This document shows, one piece after another, positions 1,115 to 25,114 of a DNA stretch of 64,000 nt (positions are counted from its first letter, which is position 1; each line of letters starts with the position of its first letter). The notes beneath the pieces are model-generated. The model saw only the letters and a program-made list of their open reading frames with translations, was not told where the DNA came from and made no database searches. Where the stretch lies: NCBI RefSeq assembly GCF_000024545.1, contig NC_013947.1:186001-250000 (forward strand), read 5' to 3'. The stretch is from Stackebrandtia nassauensis DSM 44728 (lineage in GTDB: Bacteria; Actinomycetota; Actinomycetes; Mycobacteriales; Micromonosporaceae). A program made the translations under genes and the position numbers.

Positions 1115-4100
1115 TCACGACAGCCGGGAGGCGTCCAGGCGGTGCTTCGATCGGTCGACCCGGCCGATCGCGGGGGTGGCGGGTTCGGTGTCGGTCAGGC
1201 CGTCGAGGTGGCTGGCCAGGTCGCGCAGCCGGGGGTGGGCGAAGATGTCGCGCAGCGCCACGTCGGGGTGGAGGCGTTCCCGGATCCGGGTGACCACGCG
1301 CATCGCCGCCAGCGAGTGGCCGCCGGAGGTGAAGAAGTCGGCATCCCGGGTGGGTGTCGGGGTGCCCAGGACGTCGTGCCAGATCGCGGCCAATGCGAGC
1401 TCGGTGGCGGTGGTGGGCGGCTCCTGGTTCGCGTGCGACGGGCTGGGGTCGGGCAGCGCGCTGACGTCGACCTTTCCGTTGGGGTTCAACGGGAAGGCGT
1501 CGAGGATCGCCCACGCCGACGGCAGCATGTGGGTGGGCAGCGACTCGACGGCACTCGCGTGCAGGGCCGCGGTGTCGAGCCGGTGGCCGGGTTGGGCGAG
1601 GACGTAGGTGACCAGGCGTTTGCCGCCGCTGGGGTCGTCGCGGGTGACGGTGAGGTTGTCGCGGACGCCGGGGAAGTCGCGGACGGTGGCGTCGACCTCG
1701 CCGAGTTCGACCCGGCAGCCGTTGATCTTGACCTGGTTGTCGGTGCGGCCCAGGAACTTGAGGTTGCCGTCGCCGGTCCAGCGGACCAGGTCGCCGGTGT
1801 GGTAGCCGCGGCTGCCGTCGGGGGCGGGCCGGAACCGTTCGGCGGTCAGGTCGGGGCGGTGCAGGTAGCCACGTCCGACGCCCGCGCCGCTGATGACCAG
1901 TTCGCCGGGGACGCCGCGCGGGACGAGCCGTCCGGCGGGGTCGACGACGTGCAGCCGGGTGTTGGCGATGGGACGGCCGATCGAGATGGGAGTGTCGGCC
2001 GTGACCGGGGCGAAACACACCGACACGGTGGTCTCGGTGGGGCCGTAGCCGTGCAGGACGGTGATGCCGAGGTCCAGCAGCGCCTCGGCGAGCGCGTCCG
2101 AAATGGTCTCACCGCCGCAGAACAGCAGCCGCACCGTGTCGGGGAGCTTCGCGGTGTGGCTGGTGTACAGCTTCATGACGCCGGGAGTGGCGCCGAAGTG
2201 GGTGGCGCCCCGGCGAAGCAGCGCGTCGAGTTCGTCGGGGTCGGCGGTGACCTCGGGGGCGATGATGACGCGACCGCCGACGGTCAGTGGCAGCGTCAGT
2301 TCGCGCACGGCCGGGTCGAAGGACAGTGAGGACAGTGCCAGGAGCCGGTCCTCGGGGCCGAAACCGGGGTCGGCGGCGTAGGCGTCGAGCAGATTGACCA
2401 GATTGGAGTGTTCGACCATGACACCCTTGGGGTTGCCGGTCGAACCGGAGGTGTACATGACGTAGGCGAGGTTGGCGCCGGTGATGTCCACATCGGGCCA
2501 GTCAGCGTCGTCGGGGGCGGGGTGCTGGCCGGGCAGGACGATGTCGACGTCGCCCACGTCGAGGGTCGCGGCGGTTTCGGGCGTCGCCAGCAGGACCGTC
2601 GGGCGGCTGTCGGCGATCATGTACTCGAGGCGTTTGCGGGGGTAGGACGGGTCCATCGGGATGAACGCGCCGCCGCACATCCACACCGCCAGCAGGCTGG
2701 CCAGCAGCATCCGGTCGCGGCGCATGCACACGCCGACAAGGGATTCCGGGCCGACGCCGCGTTCGCGCAGTATCACCGACAGGGCGCGGACCTGGTGCAT
2801 GAGCTCGGCGTAGGTCCAGGTGCCGTCGGCGTCCTCGACGGCGACGCGGTCGGGGGGCTGCTCGGCGATCCGGCGGATCTTCCACGGGACGACGGTCGGG
2901 TCGGGGTGGCGGATCGGGCCGGTGCCCAGGGCGGCCAGTTCGGCGCGTTCGGCGGCGGGCAGCAGGTCGATGCCACCGACGCGCTGGTGTGGGTCGTCGG
3001 CTATGGACTCAAGGAGCTGGTTGAACTGGGCGGCGATGCGTTCGACGGTGGCGCGGTCGAACAGTTCGGTGGCGTAGCGCAGTTCGCCGGTCAGGCCGTG
3101 CGCGGTCGGGGTGAGGTGCACGGCGAGATCGAAGGGGGTCGCCCCGACGGTCTCAGGTTGTTCGGTGAGCTCGGCACCGGGCAGGTCCAGCCGCGTCGCG
3201 GGGACGTCCTGGAGGCTGAACAGCACCTGCACCAACGGGTTGTGGGCGAGGCTGCGCTGCGGGTCGAGGTCGTCGACCAGGTCGGCGAACGGGACTTCCT
3301 GGCGCGTGAACGCGGCGAGGCTGGAGCCGGTGACCCGGTCGAGCAGGTCGCCGAAATCGGGGTCGCCGGACAGGTCTGCGGGGAGGACGAGCGTGTTGAC
3401 GAAGAAGCCTAGCGTGGACTCGCTGTCGACTGTGGTGCGGTTGGCGACGGGGGTGCCGACCAGGAAACGCTCCTGGCCACTCCAGCGGTGCAGCAGGACA
3501 TCGCAGGCGGCCAGCAGGGTCATGAAACGGGTGGCGCCGTGTTCGCGGCCAAGGCGTTCCAACTTGTCGGCGACTTCGGCGGGTACGCCGAAGTGGACGG
3601 TGTCGGTGGCGAAGTCGCGTTCAGGTGGGCGGGGGCGGTCGGCGGGCAGTTCCAGCAGCTGCGGGAAGTCCGACAGGGTGGTGACGTACTCGGCGCGGGA
3701 TTGCTTCAGCGCCGACGATGCCATGCGGGCGCGCTGGGCGCGCGCGAAGTCGCCGTACTGCTTGGGGGCGGGGAGGTCGGTGACGGTGCCGGTGGTCCGG
3801 TCGCGGTAGTGACCGGCGACCTCGGCGAGGAACAGTTCGAGGGACCAGCCGTCGGTGATGAGGTGATGCAGCACGATGGCCAGCTGGGTCTCGTCGCCGC
3901 GCATGATCGCCAGGCGCAGCAACGGAAGCGCGGCGACGTCGAAGGGGCGGGTGACGAACGCGGTCACCGCGTCCGGCACGTCGGTGGCCTCGATGAGCTC
4001 GACGCGCGGCTGCCAGGGCGGTGCGATCACCTGGACCGGTTCGTCGTCGAGGACGTCGAAGCGGGTGCGCAGGACCTCGTGGCGGCGCACCGTTTCGGCC

Positions 4101-6031
4101 AGCGCCCACTCCAGCGCGGGGACGTCGATCGAGCCTTCGACGCGGTAGGACTTGAAGACGTTGTTGACGGCGGTACCGGAGGCGAGCTGGCTGGTGAGCC
4201 AGAGTTGTTGCTGCGCGGGCGAAAGCGGGACGGGGGCGTCGGCCTCAGCCGGTGTCGGTGCGGGGTCGTCGGGCGCGGGGCTGTGATTGCCGAGCAGCTG
4301 CGCCAGCGCCGAGGGAGTGGCGGCGGCGAACAGGTCGCGGTACTTGAGTTCGATGCCGAAGCGGTCGCGGATGCGGGCCAGCAGCATGGTCAGCTGGAGC
4401 GAGTGGCCGCCCGCGTCGAAGAAGTCGGTGTCGGTGCCGACGGCCGGGGTGCCGAGGACTTCGGCGAACAGCGAGGTCAGGAGCTCGACAGGGGCGGTGC
4501 CGGACGGGGCCGCGCTCGAGGGCCCGGCGGGACGCTCGTCAGTCAGAGCCTCGAAGCCATGCGGCTCGGGCAGCGCGTCGCGGTCGAGCTTTCCGTTCGC
4601 CGACACCGGCAGCGCGTCCAGCTCCACGAACACGGCCGGGACCATATAGGACGGCAGCAGCTCGGCCAGCGCCTCGCGCAGCCGCGGGGCCTCGCGTCCG
4701 GGTTCGGGCACCACGTAGCTGATGAGCCGTTGCTCGCCGACGGCGTCGGGACGGGCGACGGTGACACAGTCGGCGACGCCGTCCAGCCAGCGCAACGCCG
4801 TGTCGATCTCGCCCAGCTCGACCCGGTAGCCGCGGATCTTGACCTGGTCGTCAACGCGGCCAAGGAAAACCAGACTGCCGTCGGGATTGCGGTGAGCCAG
4901 GTCGCCGGTGCGGTAGGCGCGCTCGCCGTCGGGCCCGGTCACGAACCGCTCGGCGGTCAGTTCGGGGAGACCCAGGTAACCCCGCGCCAGTCCCGCGCCG
5001 CAGATCCAGATCTCGCCGCGCTCGTCCGGCTGACCGTCCTCATTGATCAAATGGATCCGGGTGTTGTCGATGGCCTGCCCGATCGAGGGGACGGCGGCGG
5101 TGTCACCCGGATGCGGCTTCACCACCGTCGAGGTCGCCACGACCGTGCATTCGGTGGGGCCGTAGTTGTTCACGAGTGTGAACGGGTGGTCACCCGGGTG
5201 GAGCCGCAGCCGGTCGCCGCCGGTCAGCAGCACCCGCAACGCCAGCCGGTCGTCGGCGGGACGGCGCAGCAGGTGCTCGGCCATCACGGTGGGCAGGAAC
5301 GCCACCGTGACCGCTTCGGCCGCGCACCAGTCGATCGCCTCGTCGAAGGACTGCCGGATGTCCTCGGGGATGACGTGCAGCGCGGCCCCGTTGGCCAGCG
5401 CCGACCAGATCTCCCACACCGAGGCGTCGAAGCCCGCCGCCGCGATGTGGGAGCAGCGGTCGGCGGTGGTGATGTCGAAGGCCTCGCCGTGCCAGCGCAC
5501 CAGGTTGGTCAGGGCGGCGTGCTCCACCATGACACCCTTGGGTTCCCCTGTGGACCCCGACGTGTAGATGACGTACGCCAGGTCCGACGGCTGCGGGCGG
5601 TGCGGCCATGCGGTGGGTGCCAAGGCGTCCGGGACCGTGTCGGTGTCGATGACCGGGACACCGGACGGCACCGGAACCCGGTCCGCCAGGCCGGTGGTGG
5701 TCAGCAGCGCGGTGAAGCCGCTGTCGGCGGCGAGGTACTCCAGCCGGTGCCGCGGGTAGCTCGGGTCCAGCGGCAGGTAGGCGGCACCGGCCGCCCAGGT
5801 CGCCAGCAGCGCGGCGATGCCGTCGCGGCCGCGCGGCATGCACACCCCCACCAGGTCGCCGGGCCGCACGCCCGCGTCACCCAGTGCGGTGGCCAGCCGG
5901 GACGCGCGGGCCAGCAGTTCGGTGTACGTCCACCGTCCGTCCCCGGCGCTGACCGCGATCCGGTCGGGGTGCGCGTCGGTGTTGGCGCGCAACAGGTCGG
6001 GGACCGTCGCGAGTTCACGAGGCGATGTCAT
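1115..6031 (-). CDS. non-ribosomal peptide synthetase, A(Leu)-T-C-A-T
   Basis: About 1638 residues. The start at 6031 (MTSPRELATVPDLL) follows a strong AAGGAGGA ribosome site, so a longer frame to 6175 is rejected. Domains: A1 about 12-510 (YTSGSTGEPKG, NNYGPTE, GRVDDQVKIRGYRVELGE, NGKLDR), T1 about 525-595 (FFDAGGHSL), C about 605-1035 (HHLITDGWS), A2 about 1055-1545 (YTSGSTGNPKG, GYGPTETT), T2 about 1560-1630 (FFTSGGHSL). By-eye alignment to GrsA gives A1 the code DAWFLGNVVK, identical to a classical leucine code. A2 reads DPRGFGGVSK, which I cannot assign. The absence of an N-terminal C domain suggests a loading protein. There is no thioesterase. It is the last gene of the operon and overlaps the MFS gene by 17 bp. 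Confidence 0.93.
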   Translation of the reverse strand: MTSPRELATVPDLLRANTDAHPDRIAVSAGDGRWTYTELLARASRLATALGDAGVRPGDLVGVCMPRGRDGIAALLATWAAGAAYLPLDPSYPRHRLEYLAADSGFTALLTTTGLADRVPVPSGVPVIDTDTVPDALAPTAWPHRPQPSDLAYVIYTSGSTGEPKGVMVEHAALTNLVRWHGEAFDITTADRCSHIAAAGFDASVWEIWSALANGAALHVIPEDIRQSFDEAIDWCAAEAVTVAFLPTVMAEHLLRRPADDRLALRVLLTGGDRLRLHPGDHPFTLVNNYGPTECTVVATSTVVKPHPGDTAAVPSIGQAIDNTRIHLINEDGQPDERGEIWICGAGLARGYLGLPELTAERFVTGPDGERAYRTGDLAHRNPDGSLVFLGRVDDQVKIRGYRVELGEIDTALRWLDGVADCVTVARPDAVGEQRLISYVVPEPGREAPRLREALAELLPSYMVPAVFVELDALPVSANGKLDRDALPEPHGFEALTDERPAGPSSAAPSGTAPVELLTSLFAEVLGTPAVGTDTDFFDAGGHSLQLTMLLARIRDRFGIELKYRDLFAAATPSALAQLLGNHSPAPDDPAPTPAEADAPVPLSPAQQQLWLTSQLASGTAVNNVFKSYRVEGSIDVPALEWALAETVRRHEVLRTRFDVLDDEPVQVIAPPWQPRVELIEATDVPDAVTAFVTRPFDVAALPLLRLAIMRGDETQLAIVLHHLITDGWSLELFLAEVAGHYRDRTTGTVTDLPAPKQYGDFARAQRARMASSALKQSRAEYVTTLSDFPQLLELPADRPRPPERDFATDTVHFGVPAEVADKLERLGREHGATRFMTLLAACDVLLHRWSGQERFLVGTPVANRTTVDSESTLGFFVNTLVLPADLSGDPDFGDLLDRVTGSSLAAFTRQEVPFADLVDDLDPQRSLAHNPLVQVLFSLQDVPATRLDLPGAELTEQPETVGATPFDLAVHLTPTAHGLTGELRYATELFDRATVERIAAQFNQLLESIADDPHQRVGGIDLLPAAERAELAALGTGPIRHPDPTVVPWKIRRIAEQPPDRVAVEDADGTWTYAELMHQVRALSVILRERGVGPESLVGVCMRRDRMLLASLLAVWMCGGAFIPMDPSYPRKRLEYMIADSRPTVLLATPETAATLDVGDVDIVLPGQHPAPDDADWPDVDITGANLAYVMYTSGSTGNPKGVMVEHSNLVNLLDAYAADPGFGPEDRLLALSSLSFDPAVRELTLPLTVGGRVIIAPEVTADPDELDALLRRGATHFGATPGVMKLYTSHTAKLPDTVRLLFCGGETISDALAEALLDLGITVLHGYGPTETTVSVCFAPVTADTPISIGRPIANTRLHVVDPAGRLVPRGVPGELVISGAGVGRGYLHRPDLTAERFRPAPDGSRGYHTGDLVRWTGDGNLKFLGRTDNQVKINGCRVELGEVDATVRDFPGVRDNLTVTRDDPSGGKRLVTYVLAQPGHRLDTAALHASAVESLPTHMLPSAWAILDAFPLNPNGKVDVSALPDPSPSHANQEPPTTATELALAAIWHDVLGTPTPTRDADFFTSGGHSLAAMRVVTRIRERLHPDVALRDIFAHPRLRDLASHLDGLTDTEPATPAIGRVDRSKHRLDASRLS

Positions 6032-7295
6032 GAGCTTCCTCCTTGGCGGGAGTCGGGGGCTCGCCGTCGGTGACCCGGACGCTGCGCGGCAGCAGCCAGG
6101 CGGCGGCGAGGATGTGGCCGAGCGCGCCGATGACGAGGGTTTCGCGGATGCCGAGGTACTCGCCGCTGACGCCACCGGCGAGCGCGCCCAAGGCGAAGGC
6201 GCCGTAGGTGAGCATGTAGCTGCCCGCGTGCACCCGGCCCTGCATGTTCTCGGGGGTGACCTGCTGCCGGTAGGTCACCTGGGTGGTCATGAACGCGATC
6301 ATCCCGATCACGAAGATGCCGTGCGAGGCGACGAGCAGCAGTGACTTGACGATGGTGTCGCCGCCCGCGAACGGCAGTACGACGCAACCGGCGGCCATCA
6401 CGAGCTGCCCGGCGATCAGGGAACCGCGCACGCCCAGGTGCCGGGTGCCGCGTTCGGTGAAGAACCCGGAGATCAGCGCGGTGCAGCTGGCGACGCTGAG
6501 CAGGATGCCGATCATCAGCGGCGTGAAGTGCAGGACGTTCATGGCGAACAGCAGGTACAGCGACACCATCATGGCGCTGAAGAAGTTGCTGGTCGCGGTG
6601 CACAGCGTGATGGCGCGCAACCGGACGTTGCGCAGGATGAACGTGACGCCGTCCCAGATCCGGGGCTTCTCGTGCTCGGCGCGCTCGGGCGGGTGCCCGG
6701 GTTCGCGGACCCCGGCGACGAACAGCGCCGACACCAGGAAGCTGATCGCGTCGAGGATCAGCGCGATCGGCGCGGTGAGGACCTGTACGACGGCACCGGC
6801 CACCGAACCGCCCGACACCTCGGCGAAGGTGGTGACCTTCTGGAGCTTTCCGTTGGCGTCCAGCAGTTTCGGCTCGGGCACCAGTTTCGGGATGTACGCC
6901 TGCCCGCAGATCGTGGCCAGGACGTTGAACGCACCGAACCCGAACGCGATGACCAGGAACACCGGCAGGCTGAGCAGGCCCACCGCCCACAGGATCACGA
7001 TCACCGCCAGCAGCAGCATCCGGGCCAGGTCGGCGGCGACCAGTATGGAGCGTTTGGCGAACTTGTCGATGATGGCGCCGAAGTGCAGCCCGAACAGCAA
7101 CGCGGGCAGGAACTTGGAGAAGAACAGCAGCCCCTGCTCGAACGCGCCCGCGTCCAGGATCTGGATGGCGATCAGCGGGATCGCCATCGCGCTGATCTCG
7201 TCGCCCAGCAGCGACAGGCTCTGGCCGGAGAAGAAACGGGAGTAGTTGCGCTCCTCGCGGAACCTGAACGTGACGTTCTCAGTTCTGGATGTCAT
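6015..7295 (-). CDS. MFS exporter of the NRPS/PKS cluster
   Basis: 426-residue membrane protein with about 12 hydrophobic segments. It fits the EntS/macrolide-efflux type of major facilitator (N-terminal SRFFSGQSLSLLGDEISAMAIPL; cytosolic GAIIDKFAKRS loop typical of motif A). It overlaps the thioesterase gene upstream and the NRPS gene downstream by 17 bp each, so translation is coupled. The ribosome site AAGGA lies inside the thioesterase gene. The likely role is export of, or self-protection against, the cluster product. Substrate is inferred from position only. Confidence 0.88.
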   Translation of the reverse strand: MTSRTENVTFRFREERNYSRFFSGQSLSLLGDEISAMAIPLIAIQILDAGAFEQGLLFFSKFLPALLFGLHFGAIIDKFAKRSILVAADLARMLLLAVIVILWAVGLLSLPVFLVIAFGFGAFNVLATICGQAYIPKLVPEPKLLDANGKLQKVTTFAEVSGGSVAGAVVQVLTAPIALILDAISFLVSALFVAGVREPGHPPERAEHEKPRIWDGVTFILRNVRLRAITLCTATSNFFSAMMVSLYLLFAMNVLHFTPLMIGILLSVASCTALISGFFTERGTRHLGVRGSLIAGQLVMAAGCVVLPFAGGDTIVKSLLLVASHGIFVIGMIAFMTTQVTYRQQVTPENMQGRVHAGSYMLTYGAFALGALAGGVSGEYLGIRETLVIGALGHILAAAWLLPRSVRVTDGEPPTPAKEEAHDIAS

Positions 7296-8028
7296 GCAGC
7301 GGTTCCTTCGTGAGGGTGTCCTCCAGCAGCGCCGAGACGACCTGGAAGTCGTCGAAGGGGAAGAAGTGGCCGCCGGGGAAGGTGCGCAGGACGTGGTCGC
7401 CGGTCACCGATTTGGTCCACTTGCGAGCCTCTATGGGCGCGATTCCGGAGTCCTGGTCGCCGAAGTACACCCGCAGCGGACGGTCCAGCGGTTCGGCGCG
7501 GGTGTCGCGGTAGCGTTCCGACAGCCGGATCTCGTCGCGCAGCCGTCCCAGCAGCAGGTCCAGCAGTTCGGGTTCGGCGAACACCTCCTCGGGGGTGCCG
7601 CCCATGTCGCGCAGGAACCGCAGCAGCCGGTCGTCGCCGAGGTGGCTGATCCGTTCGGGCGCCGGGGTCGTGGGTGCCCGCTGCGCCATGGCGACGAGGC
7701 CGGCGAGCCGGTCGCCGTGGCGGCCCTCGTCCAGCTGCCGCGCGGTCTCGTAGGCGAGCAGGGCCCCGAAACTGTGTCCGGCCAACACGAACCGGGAGTC
7801 GCTGACGGCCAGTTCGGGAAGCAGCAGCGACGCCAGGTCGGGCAGCGAGTCGACCTCGGCGGCCTGCGCGGCGAAGTAAAGCGACCATGGGTCGACGACG
7901 CTGAGCCGGATCCACGGGCCCAGCGCGGAGTCCCAGCGCCGGAAGTGGGTCTGCGAGCCACCGGCGCCGGGGAAGCCGATCAGGTGGACCCGGGCGGCGG
8001 GTTTGGGGGTGACGGTGCGGATGTGCAT
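7279..8028 (-). CDS. type II thioesterase
   Basis: 249 residues. Start MHIRTVTPKPAARVHLIGFP at 8028 with GAGGA six bases upstream; the longer frame to 8109 is rejected. Alpha/beta-hydrolase features of stand-alone NRPS/PKS thioesterases: GFPGAGG near residue 22, nucleophile elbow GHSFGA near residue 90, and catalytic His in GGHFFPFDD near the C-terminus. Such enzymes hydrolyse misprimed or stalled acyl groups from carrier domains. Since none of the three NRPS proteins ends in an integrated thioesterase, it could also take part in product release; that is inference. It begins 10 bp after the NRPS C-A-T stop. Confidence 0.92.
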   Translation of the reverse strand: MHIRTVTPKPAARVHLIGFPGAGGSQTHFRRWDSALGPWIRLSVVDPWSLYFAAQAAEVDSLPDLASLLLPELAVSDSRFVLAGHSFGALLAYETARQLDEGRHGDRLAGLVAMAQRAPTTPAPERISHLGDDRLLRFLRDMGGTPEEVFAEPELLDLLLGRLRDEIRLSERYRDTRAEPLDRPLRVYFGDQDSGIAPIEARKWTKSVTGDHVLRTFPGGHFFPFDDFQVVSALLEDTLTKEPLHDIQN

Positions 8029-8038
8029 GGTGCGTCCT

Positions 8039-11000
8039 CTATGTCCTGCCGCGACGGCGTTCGCGGCGACGGGCCGCGTCCGGATGGGGGACGCGGCGCC
8101 GGGCGGCACCGCGCTTGGCTCCGACGGCCGGCCGGGGCTCGACGCCGAGGCTAGCGGCCAGGGCGGCGATGGTGGGGTGGGTGAAGAACGCGGTCAACGG
8201 CAGGTCGAGGCCGTGCCGGACGCGCAGCTCCTGCCGCACCTTCACAATGGACATCGAGGTGGCGCCGAGGTCGAACAGGTTGGCGGTGACGCTGACGGCG
8301 GGCAGCTGGAGCACCTCGCACCAGACCTCGTGGAGGCGGAGCTGCGCGTCGTCGGCGGGCAGTGCGCGGTCGGGGGCGGTATCGGGGGGCGCGGCCAGTG
8401 CGGCGACGGCCTTGCGGTCGCCCTTTCCGCTGGGGGTCAACGGGAGTGCGGCCACGGCGGTGATCTGGCTGGGGACCATGTGGGCCGGGAGCTGCCGGGC
8501 GGCCCAGCGCTTGGCCTCGCTGGCGAGCCAGTCGGTGCTGGTCGGCTCGCGGCCTGGCTGGCCGCCGGGAGCGACAGCAGCACCGGCGGCCGAGCCGGTG
8601 ACGGCGGCCACCAGCTGCTTCTCGCCGCCGGGGGCGGTGCGGACCGCGACGAGCGCGTCGCGGACGTCGGGGTGTTCGCGCAGCACCGCCTCGATCTCGC
8701 CGAGTTCGATGCGGTGGCCCCGGATCTTGACCTGATCGTCGACGCGGCCCAGGAAGTCGAGGCTGCCGTCGCGGTTCCAGCGGGCCAGGTCGCCGGTGCG
8801 AAACGCCCGGGTGCCGTCGGGCGCGGTCACGAACCGTTCGGCGGACAGGTCGGCGCGGCCCTGGTAGGAGCGGGCGACGCCCGTCCCGGCGATCCACAGT
8901 TCACCGGCGGCGCCGGTGGGCGCCAGCCGACCGTGGCTGTCCATGATGAACATTCGCAGGCCGGGGATCGGTCGGCCCACCGTGATCCGGCCAGGGTCGG
9001 TGATGTGGGCGCTGGTCGCCCATACCGTGGTCTCGGTGGGGCCGTAGACGTTGTGGACTTCGAGGCCGAGCCACAGCAGCGACTCGGCAAGGTCACTCGA
9101 CAGTGCCTCGCCGCCGGTGAGGATGCGGCGCAGTCGGGGCGGTGCGTCCTTGGCGTGGTCGGTGTACAGCTTCCAGGTCGACGGCGTGGCCTGGGCGACG
9201 GTGACGCCGTGCTCGGTCAGCGCCTCGTCCAGCCGCTCGGGATCGCCCGCCATCGTGTTGTCCAGCATCACCACCGTCCCGCCGGTGACCAGCGGGACGA
9301 ACAGCTCGATGAACACGGGGTCGAAGGACATGGACGTCAGGCCCGCCATGCGATCCTCGGCGGTGAACCCGAGCAGGTCGGCGAACGCGTCGATCTGGTT
9401 GGCGATGCCTCGGTGTTCTATCTGGACACCCTTGGGGCGGCCGGTGGAGCCGGAGGTGTAGATCGTGTAGGCCAGCCGGTCGGCGGGAACCTCCACAGCC
9501 GACGGTTCCAGAGTCGGATTGTCCGGCAGCTCGTCCACGTGGATGACGGGCGTGCCCTCGGCGATCGGCAGCGACGCGGCCAGTTCGCGGGTGGACAGCA
9601 CCGCCACGGCGCCGCTGTCGGCGAGCATGAACTCCAGCCGCGCGGCCGGGTAGCCGGGGTCCAGCGGCACGAACGCCGCGTCCGCCGCCCAGACACCGAG
9701 CAGAGTGGACAACATGAAGCGGTTGCGGGGCAGGCAGACCGCGACCAGTGACTCAGGTTCCAGTCCGAGTTCCCGCAGCGCCGCCGCCACGGTGTCGGCG
9801 TGTCGGCACAACCACTCGTAGCTGACCTCGCCGTCGGTGTCGATGACCGCGACCCGGTCAGGCTCGGACGCGGCGCGGTCCCTGATCCGGGTCAGCGCCG
9901 GCGTCAGATCACCCGACGGTGCCCCGGTTCCGGTGCGCAGCAGGTGCTCGCGCTCCTCGGCGGCCAGGATCTCGATGCCGGACACCGGCCGGTCCGGTGC
10001 GTCGACCATCGCCGCCACCGCGTTGCCGAAGTGGACGGCGAAACGGTGCGCGGTTTCCGGATCGAAAAGGGCGGTGGAGTACTGCACCACCCCGTCGAGC
10101 CCGGAGGCGCCGGGCGCCAACTCCAGCGTCATGTCGAACATGGACGTTCCGCCGTAGACGTCGAGACGCTCCAGCCGCGCCCCCGGCAGTTTCAGCTCGT
10201 CGCCGGGGGTGTTCTGGTACGAGAACATCGCCTGGACCAGCGGATGGTGGATGAGGCTGCGTTCCGGTGCCAGTCCCTCGACGAGCCATTCGAACGGGAC
10301 GTCCTCGTTGGCGAAGGCCGCCAGGCTCGCGTCCCGGGTGCGGGCCACCAGTTCGGCGACGGTCGGGTCGCCGGACACGTCGCCGCGCAGCACCACCGTG
10401 TTGACGAAGAACCCGATCAGCGCCTCGGTCTCGCTGCGGCCCCGGCCCGCCGACGGCGTGGCCACCAGCAGGTCCCGCTGACCAGTCCAGCGCGACAGCA
10501 CCAGGAAGTACGCGCTCAACAGTGTCATGTAGACGGTGGAGCCGCAGCGGGTGGCGAGCCGTTCGACGGCGGCCATGGTCTCGTCGGGGATCGTGAACTC
10601 GGTGGTGGCGCCCTCGTGGCGTGGCTCGTCCGGACGGAGCCGGTCGCCGGGCAGCTCCAGCAGTTGTGGCGCACCCGAAAGCGCGGCCACGTAGTCGCGG
10701 TGCCGGGCCGCCACGGCCTCCGACTTCACCGCTTCGGCCTGCCAGAGCGTGTAGTCGACGTACTGGAGTCGCAGCGGCGGCAGGTGCGGCTTGGTCCCGC
10801 CCAGGTACGCCAGGTAACAGCTGCCGATCTCGTCGGCGAGCACGCCCAGCGACCAGCCGTCGGCGATGATGTGGTGCAGCACGAACGTCAGCACGGTGTC
10901 GCCGCCGCCACGGATCAGCGCGACCCGCAGCAGCGGCGCCTCGTCGAGCCGGAACGGCCGCTCGATGACCTCGCGCAGCGCGGCCGGGGCGTCGCCGGTC

Positions 11001-17016: not shown

Positions 17017-20000
17017 TCAGTCCTGCAATACGGCGGCGATCAGCAGCTCGTCGACGGCCCTGGCGAGCTCGCGCGGCGACGTCGCTACCAGCGGCAGGTG
17101 CACCGGGATCGCGACGTCGAACCGGGACCGAAGCCGGGCCACGATCTGCCCGGCGGCGATGGAGTCACCACCGGAGGCGAAGAAATCGTCATCGGGAGCG
17201 GGCATGGCTCCCAGCGTCTCGGCCCAGCATTCGCACACGGGGCCGAGCAGCGGGACGTCCTCGGCTTCGGGCGAAGGGGTTGCCGGTGCGGGTGTGTTGT
17301 CTAGATCGGACGGGTCGATGCCGGGGGTACGGCCGCGCAGCGCCGGGTGCAGTACGGGGGTTGTCAGCAGCGGCCGGGGCGGGGCGGCGGTGCGCAGGCC
17401 GCGATCGTGCTCGGCGTAGGCGTTCCAGTCGACGGGGACGCCGTGCTGCCACAGCGCGCCGATGGCGGCGGGCAGGGTCATGCGGGCGTCGCCGTCGGGC
17501 AGCATCGCGATGCCCGTGTCGGCAGTGGTTTCCCGGATGACGGGGGTCCCGGCATTGGGCCGCATGGGGACGGCTTCCCGGATGGCGGCCAGCAGATGGG
17601 TACCGGCGCCGAGCTGCACGGGGACGGCGTTGGGGTGGGCCGCCACCACGGCGCGCAGGCCGGAGACGAAGTCGACGGGCTCGCGCAGCTGTCGTCCCCA
17701 GTAGACGGGGTCAGTGGCTTGACTCGCTTCGAGCCAGGTGCCGGTGGGGCAGGACAGCAGTGGGATTCGCGGGGGTCGCAGCGATATGCCGCGCATCCGT
17801 TTGGTGAAGGCTTCGGCGGCGTCGGCCATGGAGGCGTGGTGGAACGCGTGTGAGGTGCCCAGGCGGCGGTAGCGCAGGGCGCGGGCGTCGAGCCAGTTCC
17901 GCAGCGGTTCACCGGCGGTTGTGGATAGAACTGTGGACGATGGAGTGTTGCGGACGGAGATCTCGGTGCCGTCGGGAAGGTCGGCCAGGAGCGCGGGGGT
18001 GGCTCGGACGGCGTACATCTCGCCGGGCGGCATCGCGGCCATCGCGGCGCCTCGGTGGCATACGGCGGTGGTGGCTTCGGCGAAGTCGAGGACTCCGGCG
18101 AGTTGGGCGGCGGTGATCTCGGCGACGCTGTGCCCGGCCAGCGCGGTGGGTTGGATGCCAAGTCGCTCAAGGACTGTCGCGACACCAGCGGCCAGAAGAT
18201 GAAGGACGGGCTGGGCGACTTCGGTGTCATCGGTGAGGGTGCCGAGGACGAACGCGTTGCGGACGCGGGCGAAGGTGCGGGGGTCGGCGACGTCCTCGAC
18301 GATGTCGAGGCCGGTGTCGACGGTGGCGGTGAACCAGGGTTCGGACTGGTAGAGCTGGTGGGCGGCGGCCGACGAGCGGCCGCCCTGGCCGGGGAGCAGG
18401 TACACAAGCGACGGTGGCTCGGCCGAGGGTGAGCGGAACGATGAGGCGGTCGGCCAAACGGCGGTCGTTGCCGTGGCCGCTTGGCCTTCGACGGCCGCCG
18501 CGCCCTGGGCAGCCGACGCCGCCATGTCGGCGGTTTCGCGCTCGGCCTTGGCTACGGCCGAACCTTGGCCAGCGGTCGAGGCCGCTTGGCCTTCAGCAGC
18601 GGCCGGGGCCGTTCGGCCTTCGACGGCCGCCGCGCACTGGGCAGCCGACGCCGCCATGTCGGCGGCCTCGTGCTCGGCCTCGGTCGCGGTGGCCGCGTCC
18701 TCGACGGGGAGCATTGCCACGGCGCGGACCGCGAGCTCCGGCCGCCCCAGTCTCAGCGTGTGGCCCAGATCGTGCCGCTCGTCCGACGTGGCTTCCGACG
18801 CTGCTTGCCTTGTCGCCGTGACGGTCTCGGTCAGCCGCTGCGCATCGTCCGCCGACAGCGGCAGCACTTGCCAGCTGCGACGGGCACCGCGCCTGGCCAC
18901 CTCGTCGGGGTCGCCCAGGATGATGTGGGCGTTGGTGCCGCCCAGGCCGAACGAGCTGATCGCCGCGAAACGGGGCTCGGGGCCGCGCCGCCACGGTTCG
19001 AGCCGGTCGGTGAGCCGGAACGGGGTGTGGGACAGGTCGATCGCGGACGCGCCCTCGGTGAGCGGCAGGTTCGGCGGGATCGCCTCGTTGCGCAGGGCCA
19101 GCAGGCTCGCGATGACCCCCGCCGCTCCGGCCGCCGACGTGAGGTGGCCGATGTTGGCCTTGATCGTGCCGAGTCGCAGGCCGTCGCCGGTCATTCCGGC
19201 TTCGCGGTAGGCGAGGGTGGCGGCCTCGATCTCCAGCGGGTCGCCCACGGATGTGCCGGTGCCGTGCGTCTCGAACAGTCCGATGTGGTCCGGGGTGAGC
19301 TCGGCGACGTCCAGGGCCTCGCCGATCACCGACGACTGGCCGCTCACACTCGGCGCCGTGAAGCCGACCCGGTCGCGGCCGTCGTTGTTCACCGCCGTGC
19401 CCGCGACGACAGCGAGGATCGGGTCGCCGTCGGCCAACGCGAGATCCAGGCGGCGCAGGAACACCGACGCCACCCCGTTTCCGTCCACTGTGCCGTCCGC
19501 CGTGGTGGTGAACGGCTGGCAGCGGCCGCGCGGGGAGAACACGCCGCCCTCGGGACACAGGTAGCCCGCGTCCTCGATGTCGATCGCGACGCCCCCGGCC
19601 ACCGCCGAGTCGCACTCCCCGGCCAGGATCGCCTGGACGGCGAGGTGGATCGCGACCGCCGAGGTGGAACACGTGGTCTGGACGCTGATCGTGGGGCCGC
19701 CCAGGCCGAACGTGTAGGACAGTCGCGCGGCCAGGTAGTCGGAGTAGCTTCCCGTGACGAGCTTCGTCTCGTCGATGTCGGCCCCGGTGGCGCGCAACAG
19801 GACCGCGTGCAAGCCCGGCCGGGCCCCGACGTAGACGCCCACCGTGTCGGCCAGCGACGCGATGTGGTGCCCGGAGCTCTCCACCGCGCGGTAGGCGCTC
19901 TCCAGCATGGCGCGGTGCTGCGGGTCCATCAGTTCGGCCTCGGCGGGGCTGATGGCGAAGGCCGCCGCGTCGAAGCCCGCCGGGTTCGCCAACGGGAACG

Positions 20001-20181
20001 AGACCGGGACGAACCGGGGATCGGCGAACCGGACGCCGGGCACCCCGCGCCGCTCCAGCTCCGCGCGGTCGAACTCGCGGCGCCCGCCGCGTCCGTCGGC
20101 GAGCAGCCGCCAGAACCCGGCGGTGTCAACGGCTCCGGCGGTGCGAATGGCCGCCCCGACGATGGCGACTCGATCGGTCAT
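17017..20181 (-). CDS. type I polyketide synthase module, KS-AT-carrier protein
   Basis: About 1054 residues. The start MTDRVAIVGAAIRTAGA at 20181 is the usual ketosynthase N-terminus; a frame open to 20325 is not used. KS about 1-440 has the catalytic triad in TTCSTSA, ETHGTGT and IKANIGHL. AT about 590-900 has LLPGQGG, GHSVAE and HAFHHASM. The HAFH motif points to malonyl-CoA. The carrier domain about 975-1045 has FFASGGDSI, closer to peptidyl than acyl carriers. No ketoreductase, dehydratase or enoylreductase, so a beta-keto unit is expected. The KS-AT linker holds a 44-residue Ala-rich repeat. Start codon overlaps a 29-codon ORF. Confidence 0.93.
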   Translation of the reverse strand: MTDRVAIVGAAIRTAGAVDTAGFWRLLADGRGGRREFDRAELERRGVPGVRFADPRFVPVSFPLANPAGFDAAAFAISPAEAELMDPQHRAMLESAYRAVESSGHHIASLADTVGVYVGARPGLHAVLLRATGADIDETKLVTGSYSDYLAARLSYTFGLGGPTISVQTTCSTSAVAIHLAVQAILAGECDSAVAGGVAIDIEDAGYLCPEGGVFSPRGRCQPFTTTADGTVDGNGVASVFLRRLDLALADGDPILAVVAGTAVNNDGRDRVGFTAPSVSGQSSVIGEALDVAELTPDHIGLFETHGTGTSVGDPLEIEAATLAYREAGMTGDGLRLGTIKANIGHLTSAAGAAGVIASLLALRNEAIPPNLPLTEGASAIDLSHTPFRLTDRLEPWRRGPEPRFAAISSFGLGGTNAHIILGDPDEVARRGARRSWQVLPLSADDAQRLTETVTATRQAASEATSDERHDLGHTLRLGRPELAVRAVAMLPVEDAATATEAEHEAADMAASAAQCAAAVEGRTAPAAAEGQAASTAGQGSAVAKAERETADMAASAAQGAAAVEGQAATATTAVWPTASSFRSPSAEPPSLVYLLPGQGGRSSAAAHQLYQSEPWFTATVDTGLDIVEDVADPRTFARVRNAFVLGTLTDDTEVAQPVLHLLAAGVATVLERLGIQPTALAGHSVAEITAAQLAGVLDFAEATTAVCHRGAAMAAMPPGEMYAVRATPALLADLPDGTEISVRNTPSSTVLSTTAGEPLRNWLDARALRYRRLGTSHAFHHASMADAAEAFTKRMRGISLRPPRIPLLSCPTGTWLEASQATDPVYWGRQLREPVDFVSGLRAVVAAHPNAVPVQLGAGTHLLAAIREAVPMRPNAGTPVIRETTADTGIAMLPDGDARMTLPAAIGALWQHGVPVDWNAYAEHDRGLRTAAPPRPLLTTPVLHPALRGRTPGIDPSDLDNTPAPATPSPEAEDVPLLGPVCECWAETLGAMPAPDDDFFASGGDSIAAGQIVARLRSRFDVAIPVHLPLVATSPRELARAVDELLIAAVLQD
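18483..18665. repeat. 132-bp-offset direct repeat in the KS-AT linker
   Basis: The 51 bases 18483-18533 recur at 18615-18665 with one mismatch, an in-frame offset of 132 bp (44 residues). The protein repeat centres on ADMAASAAQxAAAVEG. It is Ala/Gly-rich linker sequence, probably from slippage or unequal exchange, and need not affect catalysis. Confidence 0.85.
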
Positions 20182-20267
20182 GCCGGCCCGCTCTCGGTGG
20201 GGCTGAACGGCGCTGCCGTTCGGTCGATCCGGCTGGCCACGCTCGCACTGGCGACTCGATCGGTCAT
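20163..20267. repeat. 19-bp direct repeat of the PKS start region
   Basis: The same 19 bases occur at 20163-20181 and 20249-20267. Read on the minus strand each begins ATGACCGATCGAGTCGCC, the first six codons of the PKS gene. The upstream copy forms the start of a separate 29-codon ORF. Confidence 0.85.
20178..20267 (-). CDS. 29-codon ORF bridging ATP-grasp and PKS genes (possible coupling peptide)
   Basis: Starting at 20267 this frame begins MTDRVA, the same six residues as the PKS, and runs 29 codons to a TGA at 20178-20180. Its ATG overlaps the stop of the ATP-grasp gene (ATGA), and its TGA overlaps the ATG of the PKS gene (again ATGA). It could couple translation across the gap, or be a by-product of the 19-bp duplication. 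No conserved motif is visible. Whether the peptide is made is unknown. Confidence 0.35.
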   Translation of the reverse strand: MTDRVASASVASRIDRTAAPFSPTESGPA

Positions 20268-21523
20268 CGGCACATCCGTTCGGCGGCGCGCTCGGCGGCC
20301 GCGTTGATCGCGAGAAGCTCCTCATGCGACTCGGTCAGGCCGACGACGGTGGCCAGCATGTCGCGTTCGCCGCGTCGGGAGTCGACGCGATCGCCGGGGC
20401 GCACCCGTTGGTTGCAGAACACGACACCGGGCAGTCCCCGCAACTCGGCAAGCGGCTTAACCGAAACCACCTCGCTGACGCCCAGTGGTGGTGGTACCGC
20501 GCGGTTGAACGCCACCCCGCGCCACGACGGCGGCGGCACCTCGACCCGCTGGCCGAGCGCCACCAGCAGCCCCATCCGGACCACGTCGATCCCCAGTGCC
20601 AGCTTCGTCAGGTGCCCGATCGGGCCGCCCAGCCGGGCGTTGACCTCGATGAGGCGGGGACCGTCGGCGGTCAGCTTGAACTCGGTGTGGCTCAAGCCAT
20701 CCCGCACGCCGAGCGCCCGCAGGATCGCCCGCTCCAGCGCCACCACCCGCTCGGCTTCGGCGTCCGGCAGCGCGGCGGGCACGATCATGCCGGTCTCGCG
20801 CATCGGCGGGGCCATCGGGAACCGGCCGGTGACGCACAACGTGGTGATCCCGCCGTCCTGGCTCAGCGACTCCACCGACACGTAGTCGGCGTGCACCTCG
20901 TCGCGGATGCCGATCCCGGTCAGTGCCTCCTCCAGCAGCAGTCCGCGGGTCTCCTCGCCGTGCACCTCCGTCACCGCGAGTTCGCAGTCCGCTTCGGACT
21001 CCACCAGCCGGGTGTTGCGGGCACCGTTGCCGCGCCGGGGTTTCAGGACGGCGGGGAACCCGACCTCGGCCGCCGCCGCGGCGACGTCCCCGGGCCCCGC
21101 GATCGCCGCGAACCGGGTCGCCTCCACCCCCGCCTCGGTGAGGCGGCGGCGCTGGCACAGCTTGTCGGTGACCACCTCCACTGTGTCCTCGGAATGTCCG
21201 ACGACGCCGCACGCCCGCGCCAGCCGCGCGGCCAGTTCCACCTTGTCGTCGGCGAACGTGGTGACCCCGGACGGCGCGAGTGCGGTGACCTCGCCGAGGA
21301 CCTCGGCCTCGTCGCGGTCGGTGGCGTCGATGACGCTTGCGAGTTCCAGCATCAACGGGAACTGTTCGGCCACATAGGGTTCCGAGCGGTCTGCGAGCAG
21401 CACGATGTCACACAGCCCGCGCGCCGCCGCGACGATCTGGGTCGCGGAGGCCGACCCGAAGGCGTAGACGACCACGAGGGTGGGAAGCGACTTCTGTCCA
21501 TTGCGGTCGTTGGGGTTTGGCAT
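20264..21523 (-). CDS. ATP-grasp ligase
   Basis: 419 residues. Start MPNPNDRNGQKSLPT at 21523 with GGAG 8 bases upstream; an upstream TTG at 21643 is rejected. N-terminal Rossmann-like domain (about 10-110), then an ATP-grasp domain with AVLKPRRGNGARNTR near residue 170 (ATP-binding Lys) and the metal/catalytic LIEVNARLGGP near 310. This is the layout of carboxylate-amine ligases of the amino-acid-ligase/carboxylase group. It leads the biosynthetic operon. Plausible roles are forming an amide between an amino acid (for instance beta-alanine from the neighbouring PanD) and the growing product, or making a dipeptide precursor. Family is firm; substrate is not known. Confidence 0.85.
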   Translation of the reverse strand: MPNPNDRNGQKSLPTLVVVYAFGSASATQIVAAARGLCDIVLLADRSEPYVAEQFPLMLELASVIDATDRDEAEVLGEVTALAPSGVTTFADDKVELAARLARACGVVGHSEDTVEVVTDKLCQRRRLTEAGVEATRFAAIAGPGDVAAAAAEVGFPAVLKPRRGNGARNTRLVESEADCELAVTEVHGEETRGLLLEEALTGIGIRDEVHADYVSVESLSQDGGITTLCVTGRFPMAPPMRETGMIVPAALPDAEAERVVALERAILRALGVRDGLSHTEFKLTADGPRLIEVNARLGGPIGHLTKLALGIDVVRMGLLVALGQRVEVPPPSWRGVAFNRAVPPPLGVSEVVSVKPLAELRGLPGVVFCNQRVRPGDRVDSRRGERDMLATVVGLTESHEELLAINAAAERAAERMCR

Positions 21524-21599
21524 CGCGTGTGCTCCATTGGCTGGACAACCCGCTGTCACCTCGACGTCGCGGGATTCCGATCGGCGGTCTGCGCCGGTG

Positions 21600-21764: not shown

Positions 21765-22190
21765 TCAGGCGGGTTTGGCCAGCGGGCTGCGTCGCGGCTC
21801 GCCCGCGACCCCGGGCGCGACGGCGGCGGGGTCGACGTCGAGGTCGATGATCTCGTTGTCGCCGTTCACATGCACGATCTTCGGGGCGTAGCCGCGCGAG
21901 TGCTCCTCGTCCATGACCGCGTACGCGATCAGGATCACCAGGTCACCCGGTTTCACCAGATGGGCGGCGGCGCCGTTGATCCCGATGACGCCGGTACCGG
22001 GCTGACCGGGGATCACATAGGTCTCCAGCCGGGCACCGTTGGTGATGTCCACAACGGCCACCTGCTCACCGGGAAGGAGGTCGGCGGCCTCCATGAGGTT
22101 CTCGTCCACGGTGAGTGACCCGACATAGTGGAGGTCGGCGTGGGTGACGGTGGCACGGTGGATTTTGGACTTCAGCATGGTTCGGAACAT
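21765..22190 (-). CDS. panD: aspartate 1-decarboxylase (pyruvoyl enzyme)
   Basis: 141 residues, starting [20 protein letters not shown]. Gly24-Ser25 in [10 protein letters not shown] is the self-cleavage site that generates the pyruvoyl cofactor; Lys9 and the INGAAAHLV core are also present. It converts L-aspartate to beta-alanine. It is normally a pantothenate enzyme, but here it stands between a SARP regulator and the NRPS/PKS operon and shares their promoter element, so beta-alanine is probably a precursor of the product. Alternatively it boosts CoA and phosphopantetheine supply. No good ribosome site is visible, and the -10 lies 6 bases from the ATG, so the transcript may be leaderless. 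Confidence 0.93.
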
Positions 22191-22196
22191 GCGGCG

Positions 22197-22250
22197 ACCA
22201 TAACGGCGTTTTCGTACGGAGATCTTGTGCCGGACACCGGAAGTCTTGCG
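22197..22250 (-). promoter_or_regulatory. putative SARP-dependent promoter of panD
   Basis: On the minus strand CGCAAGACTTCC and CACAAGATCTCC are direct repeats 21 bp apart within 22217-22250, followed by TATGGT at 22197-22202. Spacing of both repeats and of the TAnnGT hexamer is identical to that at 21600-21653. Initiation would fall at or next to the panD ATG. Confidence 0.6.
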
Positions 22251-22264
22251 CGGACCCGGTTGTC

Positions 22265-25114
22265 TCAGTCCCCGGACGGGTCGAGCCGCCCGGCCAGCCG
22301 GCCCCGCACCCGCTCGGCGTCGGGGTGCTTCAGTGCCTCCAGGATCGACAGCGCCCGCTGCCAGGTCTCGCGGGCCGCGTCGGTCTCGCCCTGCAGGAAC
22401 CGGACGTCCCCGCACCCGACCAGCGCGGAGGCGAACCCCAGCCGGTTGCCGATCGCCAGCTCGTCGTCCACGGCCCGCCGGAAGCAGTGCATCGCCTGGT
22501 CCAGGCAACCCCGACGGCGGTGGATATGGCCCAGGCTGTCCCAGATGCCGCCCTTGATCTGCTGGTAGCCGATCTTGTCGGCCAGCACCATCGCCCGCTG
22601 GCAGTGCGACAGTGCCTCCGACTGATCGCCCAGTTGCGACAGATGCCAGCCGATGGCGTTGTGCCCGATGGCCTGCGCGACCAGGTCACCGGCGAGTTCA
22701 CCCAGCTCGACCGCGCGGGTGGCGGCCGTGAGGGCCTCCCGGTGCCGTCCCCGCATCGCGTTGAGCACCGACGCCTGGTGCTGGACCCGCGCCTGCCCGC
22801 CCAGGTCGCCCAGCTGCTCGAACTGCCGCAGCGCCTCGGTTATTCGCTGTTCGGCCTCGTCGAAGCGCCCCAGCCGGGAGTAGGCGCGGCTGAGGTCGCG
22901 GTGCACCCCGGCGATCGCCCGCGGGTCGCCGAGCCGCTGCGCCGCCGCCAGCGCCTTCTCCTGGGTGGCGACCATGACGCCCCACATGCCGTGCAGGTCA
23001 AGGCAGATCAGCATCGCGGCCGCGATCCGCAGCGTCCGTGAGTCCCAGCCGTCGGCGATCGACAGCTCCATACTGGCCAACAGCGCCTCGTGTTCGGTGC
23101 GCAGCCAGGCCATCGCGGCCTGCCGGTCGGCGGGTTTCTCCGGGGTGACGCCGGGACAGCGCGATGGCTCGGGCGGCAGGTCGTGCATCGGATGCACCAG
23201 CCGCGCCGCCGCGTGGGCGGTGTGGGTGTAGTGGTCGACGACGCGCCGCAGACCCTCGCGCAGCCCCTCCCACTCCGCCAGTGTGTCCAGTTCGGACGCG
23301 TAGGAGCGCAGCAGGTCGTGGCACACGAACCGGCCCGGACGGCGCTCGGTCACCAGGTGCACCCGCAGCAGTTCACCCAGCAGCGCCCGCGCCCTCGGCA
23401 GCGGCACCCCCGCCAGCGACGCGGCGGCGGCCGTGGAGATGTCGGGACCGGGATGGTGGCCCAGCAGGATGAAGAAGTGCGCGGCCTCGGCGCCCAGCAG
23501 CCGGTAGGACCACGAGAACACCGCCCGGATGTCGGTCGACACGTCGCTCATCACGAACGGTTCCAGATCCCCGGTGGCGCCGCGCAACTCCGCCGCCGAC
23601 TGCTCCAGCTGCACCTGCGGCATCGTGGCCGCCCGCGCCGCCACCACGGCCAGCGCCAGCGGCAGTCCGGCGCAGGTGGCGATGATCGTGTCGGCGGCCT
23701 GCGGTTCGGCCGCCAGCTGCCCCTCGCCCAACCGGCTCCGCAGAAACCGGCGCGACTCCTCCGGGGTGAACTCCGACAGCGGCATCGGCACCGCCCCGTG
23801 GCTGGCCGTCAACCCGGTGAGCCGGTTGCGACTGGTGACGATCGTCAGGCACTCCGGCGTCCCCGGCAGCAGGTCCCGCACCTGCTTCTCCTCGCCCGCG
23901 TTGTCGAGCAGGATCAACATCTTGCGGTCCGCCACCAGGCTGCGGTACAGCCCGATCTGCGCGTCCGGCGACACCGGGATGCTGTGCGGCGGAACGGCCA
24001 GCGCGTCCAGGAACCCCCGGATCACGTCGGCCGGTTCGGTCGGTTGCCCGGACGGATCGAAGCCACGCAGGTTCACGTACAGCTGCCCGTCGGGGAACCG
24101 GGACGCGATCCGCTGCGCCCAGTGCACCGCCAGCGCCGTCTTGCCGACCCCGGCCATGCCGGAGATCGTCACCAGCGACGCGGACGGCAGCTGCGCGTCC
24201 AGCGTCTCCAGCTGCGCCTCCCGGTTGATGAACCCCGACACCCGGGCGGGCAGCTGTGCGGGCACCGGCGCCGGTGCCGGTGACACCGCGGCGGGCGCGG
24301 CCTCGCGCCGCTCGGTCGCGGGCGCCCGCAACAGTTCCGGTTCCTGGCGCAGGATCCGCTGGTACAGCGTCCGCAGCCGCTCCCCGGGGTCGTTGCCCAG
24401 CGTCTTGCGCAGCTGGCGGCGGGTGTCGGTGTAACGGTTGAGCGCGTCCATCGTCCGACCGCAGCGGTACAGCGCCAACAGCAACGGCGCCACCAGGTTC
24501 TCCACCAACGGATGATGCTCCACAATGGGTTCGAGGTTGCCGACGACGGCCTCGTGCTGCCCCAACTGGAGAAGGCACTCGCTCCAACCCGCCGCCGCCG
24601 CGAGGTAGTCGTTGCGCAGCCGACGGCTGGTGCGGGCGCTCCACTCGGTCTTGATGCCCGCCAGCGCCGGGCCGCGCCACTGCTCGACCGCGCCGCGCCA
24701 CAACTCCGCCGCCGTCGTCATGTCGCCACCGGCCTGCACCGCCCGCGCCTTGCCCGCCAGGTCGCGCATGCGCCACGCGTCCACCAGTTCCGGCTCGATG
24801 TCCAATTGGTACTCCGAGGTGCCCATGCGCCGCAGCCGGACCTCGTCGTGCGGTTTAAGCAACTGCCGCAGCCGGGTGACGTGGCCGTAGATGATGTTGC
24901 GGGTCTCGGTGGGATGCGGGCCGTCCCAGACGCGGTGCGCCAGTGTCTCGATGCTCACCGCGGTGCCGGGGGACAGCGCCAGACAGGCCAGCACGCACGC
25001 CTGTTTCGGCGCCCCGCCCCGCTGCCAGCCGTCCTCACCGGCGATCTCGACCGGACCGAGCAGCCTGACCAGCACCGGCCGGAGTTCGCTGGGGAGTGTG
25101 ATGTGACTGTCCAT
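22265..25114 (-). CDS. SARP-family transcriptional activator with NB-ARC and TPR domains
   Basis: About 949 residues from ATG 25114 ([20 protein letters not shown]); an in-frame ATG at 25168 is possible, and neither has a good ribosome site. The N-terminal OmpR-like winged helix (about 15-100; [30 protein letters not shown]) is followed by the bacterial transcriptional activator domain (about 105-255). An NB-ARC ATPase follows (about 290-560, P-loop [11 protein letters not shown], Walker [10 protein letters not shown]). C-terminal TPR-like helices start at about 690. This is the large AfsR-like architecture. Its position at the head of the cluster, together with paired repeat elements before panD and the ligase operon, makes it the likely pathway activator. 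Confidence 0.92.

What the first reader, a model, noticed from the sequence alone, without database searches (positions are those of the whole stretch)
1115..25114. Uncharacterised-looking SARP-controlled NRPS/PKS cluster with its own PanD and ATP-grasp ligase
Seen: SARP, aspartate 1-decarboxylase, ATP-grasp, KS-AT-T, C-A(Ser)-NMT-T-C*, C-A-T, type II TE, MFS and A(Leu)-T-C-A-T on one strand with overlaps. Known: PanD makes beta-alanine; beta-alanine-type A codes start with V rather than D. All four A domains here keep the initial Asp, so none looks beta-alanine specific. Inference: beta-alanine may enter through the ATP-grasp ligase, and building blocks would be Leu, an unassigned residue, malonate, N-methylserine, a Gly-like residue and beta-alanine. 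I cannot match this to a known compound.
Basis: partly seen in the sequence, partly recalled or inferred. Interest (0 to 1): 0.85.

Follow-up and report, generated by a model that had tools for sequence, protein, structure and literature searches.

The report
Orphan peptide-polyketide cluster with beta-alanine supply
An unnamed, probably actinobacterial genome carries a compact set of genes for a peptide-polyketide natural product that I could not match to a known compound, including its own copy of the enzyme that makes beta-alanine; the most likely use of that beta-alanine is loading by one of the cluster's own assembly-line modules, much as in the known antibiotic kirromycin.

Summary
In detail: nine same-strand genes (window 1115-25168) encode SARP, PanD, ATP-grasp ligase, KS-AT-T, C-A(Ser)-NMT-T-C*, C-A-T, thioesterase, MFS and A(Leu)-T-C-A-T. 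PanD is a second copy with its catalytic positions intact; the presumed housekeeping panD lies elsewhere. The signature is also close to the glycine code, so this is likely, not shown. The ATP-grasp is L-amino acid ligase-like by sequence and predicted fold; its substrate is unknown. C* has lost the catalytic His (DYRRLDG). Searches with single proteins found no orthologous cluster: ATP-grasp and KS in 354 family genomes (own included), KS in a class-wide draw of 325. MIBiG could not be checked. Verdict: a real orphan hybrid cluster of a known kind.

The parts
22265..25168 (-). SARP/AfsR-like regulator (BTAD, NB-ARC, TPR)
   Evidence: Pfam and NCBIfam hits; below the NCBIfam AfsR equivalog cut-off (416.5 of 1430 bits)
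21765..22190 (-). PanD, aspartate 1-decarboxylase, second copy; Lys9, Gly24-Ser25, Arg54, Thr57 and Tyr58 present
   Evidence: PF02261 4.7e-49, TIGR00223 above cut-off, alignment to PanD chain 2c45; other copy at G000:C1:97478-97885, 73% identical. Which residues are catalytic is recalled
20264..21523 (-). ATP-grasp, L-amino acid ligase-like
   Evidence: PF13535 above cut-off, PF18603 LAL_C2 below its cut-off; best PDB sequence hits are L-amino acid ligases; predicted fold, mean pLDDT 84.4, six best PDB matches all L-amino acid ligases
17017..20181 (-). PKS KS-AT-T, no reductive domain; KS Cys and His motifs present; AT motifs GHSVAE and HAFHH (malonyl-like)
   Evidence: Pfam; motifs read (their meaning recalled)
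11247..16991 (-). NRPS-B: C-A(Ser, DVWHFSLID)-N-MT-T-C*
   Evidence: Pfam; code
11250..12674 (-). C*: C-terminal condensation-like domain with motif DYRRLDG (catalytic His to Tyr)
8039..11254 (-). NRPS-C: C-A-T, pocket DPIQLGVVW; proposed beta-alanine module
7279..8028 (-). stand-alone thioesterase (GHSFG), type II-like
   Evidence: PF00975 3e-34; motif read
6015..7295 (-). MFS transporter
   Evidence: PF07690 1.6e-29
1115..6031 (-). NRPS-D: A(Leu, DAWFLGNVV)-T-C-A(DPRGFGGVS)-T, no N-terminal C domain, no thioesterase domain

Best explanation
This is an orphan hybrid NRPS/PKS cluster. PanD decarboxylates L-aspartate to beta-alanine dedicated to the pathway, and the stand-alone C-A-T enzyme (NRPS-C) activates and loads it, as KirD and KirB are stated to do in kirromycin. 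NRPS-D, which lacks an N-terminal C domain, starts the chain with Leu and adds a second residue (X). An arrangement that uses every module once with fitting junctions is NRPS-D (Leu-X), NRPS-C (beta-Ala), PKS (one malonate, keto group left), NRPS-B (N-methyl-Ser), with release at or after C*. The thioesterase edits or frees the chain, the ATP-grasp ligase adds one more amide-linked building block, and the MFS protein exports the product. Shown: gene content, domains, pocket codes, loss of the C* His, second PanD copy. Inferred: beta-alanine as substrate of NRPS-C (about 0.6), module order (about 0.3), roles of the ATP-grasp, thioesterase, MFS protein and C*.
For: PanD is a second copy with the catalytic positions kept, while another panD lies at G000:C1:97478-97885 in a stretch that also holds a type III pantothenate kinase. 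Aurodox AurB is reported to have DTLQLGVIWK and to incorporate beta-alanine presumably made by the PanD AurD (passages of PMC9361827); KirB/KirD of kirromycin likewise, without a code (passages of PMC5818483). NRPS-C reads DPIQLGVVW: 6 of 9 positions the same, of the other three I/L and V/I conservative. Locus L136 in a family member has C-A-T, O-methyltransferase, tandem AT, PanD, methyltransferase in the published order aurB, aurM*, aurCI, (aurOII), aurD, aurM, and carries DTLQLGVIW. Among fetched loci with an A domain, D.[LI]Q.G.[VI]W occurs in 6 of 19 with PanD and 4 of 62 without (Fisher p=0.009; limits under evidence against).
Against: The signature is also close to the glycine code DILQLGLIW (recalled; 5 of 9 the same), so glycine is a real alternative. 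The nearest A-domain relatives of NRPS-C outside the window (L046, L048, 50%; DILQWGVIW) lie in clusters with no PanD match in the 33-40 kb read; NRPS-C is only 45% identical to the L136 domain. The code of AurB rests on one sentence of one paper and on L136. The Fisher test was framed after the codes were seen, counts the window itself and related loci, joins loci from different searches, takes PanD places from a capped list, includes PanDs that are the only match of their genome, and leaves out the short loci L031-L039, one of which (L033) has DILQLGVIW. No TE-I domain, reductase or Dieckmann cyclase was recognised, so release is unexplained.
Confidence: 0.55

Rival explanations
1. One reading: beta-alanine enters through the ATP-grasp ligase, and NRPS-C loads glycine or another small amino acid.
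For: The enzyme is L-amino acid ligase-like by sequence and predicted fold. In 2 of 55 other family places with this ATP-grasp, G017 and G090, a PanD lies 4-7 kb away, in clusters with further pantothenate-pathway genes.
Against: In 53 of the 55 places no PanD was found in the stretch read (some stretches end at contig ends), so the ligase family is not tied to beta-alanine. The premise that no A domain here can take beta-alanine is wrong.
Confidence: 0.2
2. PanD is a self-resistance copy: the product inhibits PanD or CoA synthesis and the cluster copy is the tolerant form.
For: In the tree of 59 PanD rows the cluster PanD falls with the presumed housekeeping PanDs of the family (33 rows, support 96/91) and not with PanDs found in other clusters, on a long branch of 0.51, as a diverged target copy could.
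Against: The tool warns that the place of such a long row is unsure. A supply copy would look the same. KirD and AurD are stated to supply beta-alanine, and a candidate beta-alanine module is present.
Confidence: 0.1
3. PanD only boosts CoA or phosphopantetheine supply for the carrier domains; no beta-alanine in the product.
For: Two relatives (L079, L080) carry PanD together with pantothenate kinase and other CoA-pathway genes in clusters with the ligase and carrier domains.
Against: No other CoA-pathway gene was seen among the nine genes; hybrid clusters do not usually need one (general knowledge).
Confidence: 0.1

Closest known systems
Kirromycin/aurodox cluster (KirB + KirD, AurB + AurD)
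   Same: PanD in the cluster; C-A-T module with a D..QLGV.W pocket; no TE-I domain
   Different: No stand-alone AT, P450 or Dieckmann cyclase recognised among the nine genes; one PKS module with its own AT; extra Leu, X and N-methyl-Ser modules and an ATP-grasp ligase
L-amino acid ligases (BacD/YwfE, BL00235, RizA)
   Same: ATP-grasp; the six best PDB matches of the predicted structure are chains of these three enzymes
   Different: 16-21% identity in that comparison; sits in an NRPS/PKS cluster; substrate unknown
Glycopeptide X domain
   Same: Condensation-like domain with the catalytic His replaced
   Different: Tyr here, Arg there (PMC1894796, passages); no P450 among the nine genes to recruit
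G022/G019 hybrid clusters (unnamed family members)
   Same: KS 58-59% and a C-A-T 41-42% identical, in adjacent genes
   Different: AT only a fragment in the one scanned, G022; other PKS/NRPS genes around; no PanD or ATP-grasp match in the 33-40 kb read

Membership tests
Kirromycin-type PanD-fed beta-alanine module | PanD encoded in the cluster | tested here: met
Kirromycin-type PanD-fed beta-alanine module | A-domain pocket DTLQLGVIWK | tested here: inconclusive
   DPIQLGVVW, 6 of 9 the same; close to the glycine code too
Kirromycin-type PanD-fed beta-alanine module | Beta-alanine found in the product | not testable with these tools
   needs chemistry
Kirromycin family cluster as a whole | stand-alone acyltransferases, P450, Dieckmann cyclase (listed in PMC9361827) | tested here: not met
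   none recognised in Pfam scans of the nine genes
L-amino acid ligase (ATP-grasp) | ATP-grasp fold closest to L-amino acid ligases | tested here: met
L-amino acid ligase (ATP-grasp) | ATP-dependent amide formation between amino acids | not testable with these tools
   needs an enzyme assay
Canonical condensation domain (C*) | second His of HHxxxDG | tested here: not met
   DYRRLDG; 61 of 71 C-like domains aligned keep His in this column, C* is the only Tyr, nine others also differ
Glycopeptide X domain (C*) | second His replaced by Arg; P450s to recruit | tested here: not met
   Tyr instead of Arg; no P450 among the nine genes
Dehydrating condensation domain (C*) | sits after a Ser/Thr carrier and forms a dehydro residue | tested here: inconclusive
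   Position after A(Ser)-NMT-T fits; best PDB sequence matches are PvdL and other condensation domains, AmbE scores lower; activity not testable
Known compound in MIBiG | close match of the gene set | not testable with these tools
   MIBiG/antiSMASH not available

The most novel reading that the evidence does not exclude
C* is a condensation-like domain that has given up peptide bond formation (His to Tyr) for another job on the N-methyl-seryl chain: either dehydration alone to N-methyl-dehydroalanine, with the separate C domain of another NRPS making the bond, or ring-closing release of the beta-keto-acyl-N-methyl-seryl chain as a tetramic acid.
Probability: 0.12. Interest if true: 0.6.

Novelty: new member of a known kind. 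Interest (0 to 1): 0.4.

Why it matters
If the model holds, it gives a second, D-leading pocket type to look for when a PanD sits in a cluster, which would correct specificity calls that now read 'glycine'. It also points to an orphan pathway whose product can be sought by simple beta-alanine or aspartate labelling. The unusual C* domain is a testable side question on how condensation-like domains are reused.

Tried and rejected
Genus synteny: the congener with a DUF3500 relative (G345) matched, in the 40 kb compared, only DUF3500 (63%) and one response-regulator-like flank protein (42%), so no empty site could be defined. Whole-cluster relatives: the KS search at E<=1e-115 found 3 of 354 family genomes, the own one, G022 and G019, and 1 of 325, the own one, in a class-wide draw. 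The GTDB scan with the ATP-grasp, which works through six short exact peptide patterns, found 8 loci, all Streptomyces or Kitasatospora, with identities of 33-43% and no PanD match in the stretch held. These searches used single proteins; the whole cluster was not searched for as a unit. Kasichelin as a guide to beta-alanine codes: its paper only proposes pyrimidine breakdown as a source and gives no usable code in the passages seen (PMC12305651). PARAS paper: nothing usable in the passages seen (PMC13126170). Papers: five searches for the gene combination, N-methylserine with beta-alanine, and pantothenate genes in clusters showed no description of this cluster in their listings (first 9-20 rows each; one search gave none); nothing wider is claimed. 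Tetramate papers PMC10161427 and PMC10956176 were seen as abstracts only and gave no case of a C domain as a Dieckmann cyclase. A first alignment and a regular-expression reading of pocket codes misread some positions and were replaced; these two still differ at one position for L132 and L138 (DMWNLGLIN, DMENLGLIN). Rfam: no match in the window. Plasmid collection with the ATP-grasp: 5 weak relatives, none followed. Dieckmann role for the thioesterase: considered; its GHSFG serine motif by recall fits a type II thioesterase better.

Full report
What is there. Nine genes on the minus strand, window 1115-25168, were read and matched to Pfam and, for seven of the nine, NCBIfam. Likely starts were inspected. 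A convergent MarR gene ends at 1114; DUF3500, two ORFs without a Pfam match and then sugar-uptake genes lie beyond the SARP, so the cluster is bounded.

Genome and kin. The window is position 186001-250000 of a 6.84 Mb single-contig genome; no tool names the organism. Another panD lies at 97478-97885, in a stretch that also holds a type III pantothenate kinase and a DUF2520 protein; I take it as the housekeeping copy. The cluster PanD is 73% identical to it. In one search, 26 of 150 family genomes, counted by eye from the table and the own genome included, have two or more PanD matches, so a second PanD is not rare. In a tree of 59 PanD rows the cluster copy falls among 33 rows that are mostly the best-scoring and presumed housekeeping PanDs of the family, on a long branch whose place the tool calls unsure, and not with PanDs from other clusters.

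Adenylation codes. Pocket residues were taken from MAFFT alignments of the A domains found in the fetched loci: DAWFLGNVV, DPRGFGGVS, DVWHFSLID and DPIQLGVVW. The tenth position (Lys) was not extracted. By recalled tables the first and third are Leu and Ser. The second is unassigned; its best-scoring relative is NRPS-C itself (51%). The fourth is the important one. The aurodox paper says that AurB has 'the conserved DTLQLGVIWK motif' and incorporates beta-alanine presumably made by the PanD AurD (passages seen, PMC9361827). The kirromycin paper states that KirB incorporates beta-alanine made by KirD (passages seen, PMC5818483). So a leading Asp does not rule out beta-alanine. As a check inside the present data, locus L136, fetched only because it holds a PanD, has C-A-T, O-methyltransferase, tandem AT, PanD and a second methyltransferase, matching aurB, aurM*, aurCI, aurD, aurM, and the code DTLQLGVIW; a P450 lies further on, not between AT and PanD as aurOII does.

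How strong is this? In one search, 29 loci hold a PanD; 19 of them have an A domain, and 6 of the 19 carry D.[LI]Q.G.[VI]W, against 4 of 62 loci without PanD (Fisher p=0.009). Ten PanD loci without an A domain were left out. The pattern was written after the codes had been seen. The window is one of the six; four others (L132, L138, L146, L148) look alike, and L132 has hydroxamate-siderophore genes. The PanD places were picked from a capped list, some are the only PanD match of their genome, and the short loci L031-L039 were not included; one of these, L033, has DILQLGVIW. The test is only indicative. The glycine code is nearly the same, and the closest relatives of this A domain outside the window (L046, L048) lie in clusters where no PanD was matched. 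I put beta-alanine at NRPS-C at about 0.6.

ATP-grasp. By sequence the best solved relatives are L-amino acid ligases, and the predicted structure (mean pLDDT 84.4, nine sequences) has L-amino acid ligase chains as its six best PDB matches. In 354 family genomes, 49, the own one included, have a match at E<=1e-40, 56 places in all. The 55 places other than the window's were read with up to about 10 kb on either side, less at contig ends; PanD was found in 2 of 55, G017 and G090. Both hold further pantothenate-pathway genes. The ligase family is therefore a general cluster enzyme; it may or may not handle beta-alanine here.

C*. The C-terminal domain of NRPS-B best matches condensation domains of PvdL, which I read as DCL type from recalled motifs. 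Its motif is DYRRLDG. Among 71 C-like domains aligned, 61 have His at the catalytic column; C* is the only Tyr, and nine others have Leu, Asn, Ala, Arg or a gap, some perhaps by misalignment. Two of these nine are C domains of the G022 and G019 relatives (HAIVADA, HRIVADA), so loss of this His is not unique to the window. The second His is described as seemingly essential, and in glycopeptide X* it is Arg (passages of PMC1894796). C* thus is not a normal condensation domain. A(Ser)-NMT-T followed by a condensation-like domain recalls microcystin synthetase A (recalled). The review PMC10880069 (passages) says that mutating the corresponding His of the dehydrating domain AmbE-C2 harms it, which speaks against simple dehydration by C*. 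Its role is open.

Assembly order. NRPS-D lacks an N-terminal C domain and is taken as the start. Leu-X, beta-Ala, malonate, N-methyl-Ser uses each module once with fitting junctions, but a route in which C* serves the Leu module of NRPS-D is not excluded. No TE-I, reductase or Dieckmann cyclase was recognised; release is unknown.

Distribution and novelty. No orthologous cluster was seen. The KS search in 354 family genomes found two relatives at 59%, in other clusters; the class-wide draw of 325 genomes, which holds the own genome and at least two family members, gave none besides the own genome. None of the four congeners has the ligase or the KS at the thresholds used. MIBiG could not be searched. 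The listings of five paper searches showed no description. I therefore call it a new member of a known kind, interest 0.4.

Noticed in passing
L079 (G017:C1:2981000-3000999) and L080 (G090:C1:265000-284999): Two clusters combine PanD, type III pantothenate kinase, carrier-thioesterase, A domain, class III aminotransferase and the ATP-grasp ligase; L080 also has ketopantoate hydroxymethyltransferase and L079 a CoaB-like domain. They may make a pantothenate-derived compound or carry CoA-pathway resistance copies.
   Followed up: partly
L136 (G313:C1:3390500-3410499): Kirromycin/aurodox-type cluster in a family member, with DTLQLGVIW NRPS, tandem AT, methyltransferases, P450 and PanD.
   Followed up: partly
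L132, L138, L146, L148: PanD within about 10 kb of NRPS with DILQLGLVW, in three of the four also DMENLGLIN; L132 has ornithine/lysine monooxygenase, formyltransferase and periplasmic binding protein. Possible siderophores with beta-alanine rather than glycine.
   Followed up: partly
L045-L048 (G022, G019): Hybrid clusters with a KS 58-59% like the window's, an AT fragment (scanned in G022 only) and an NRPS with two A domains that has a C domain also lacking the catalytic His.
   Followed up: partly
L084, L085, L092: Condensation-like domains with His-Asn in place of His-His, following an A domain with a Ser-like code.
   Followed up: no
window 18480-18690: Alanine-rich, partly duplicated linker between KS and AT of the PKS, read; coordinates approximate.
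   Followed up: no
window 45645-46898 and 47621-48241: LanC-like protein and a Clp protease near one another, outside the cluster.
   Followed up: no
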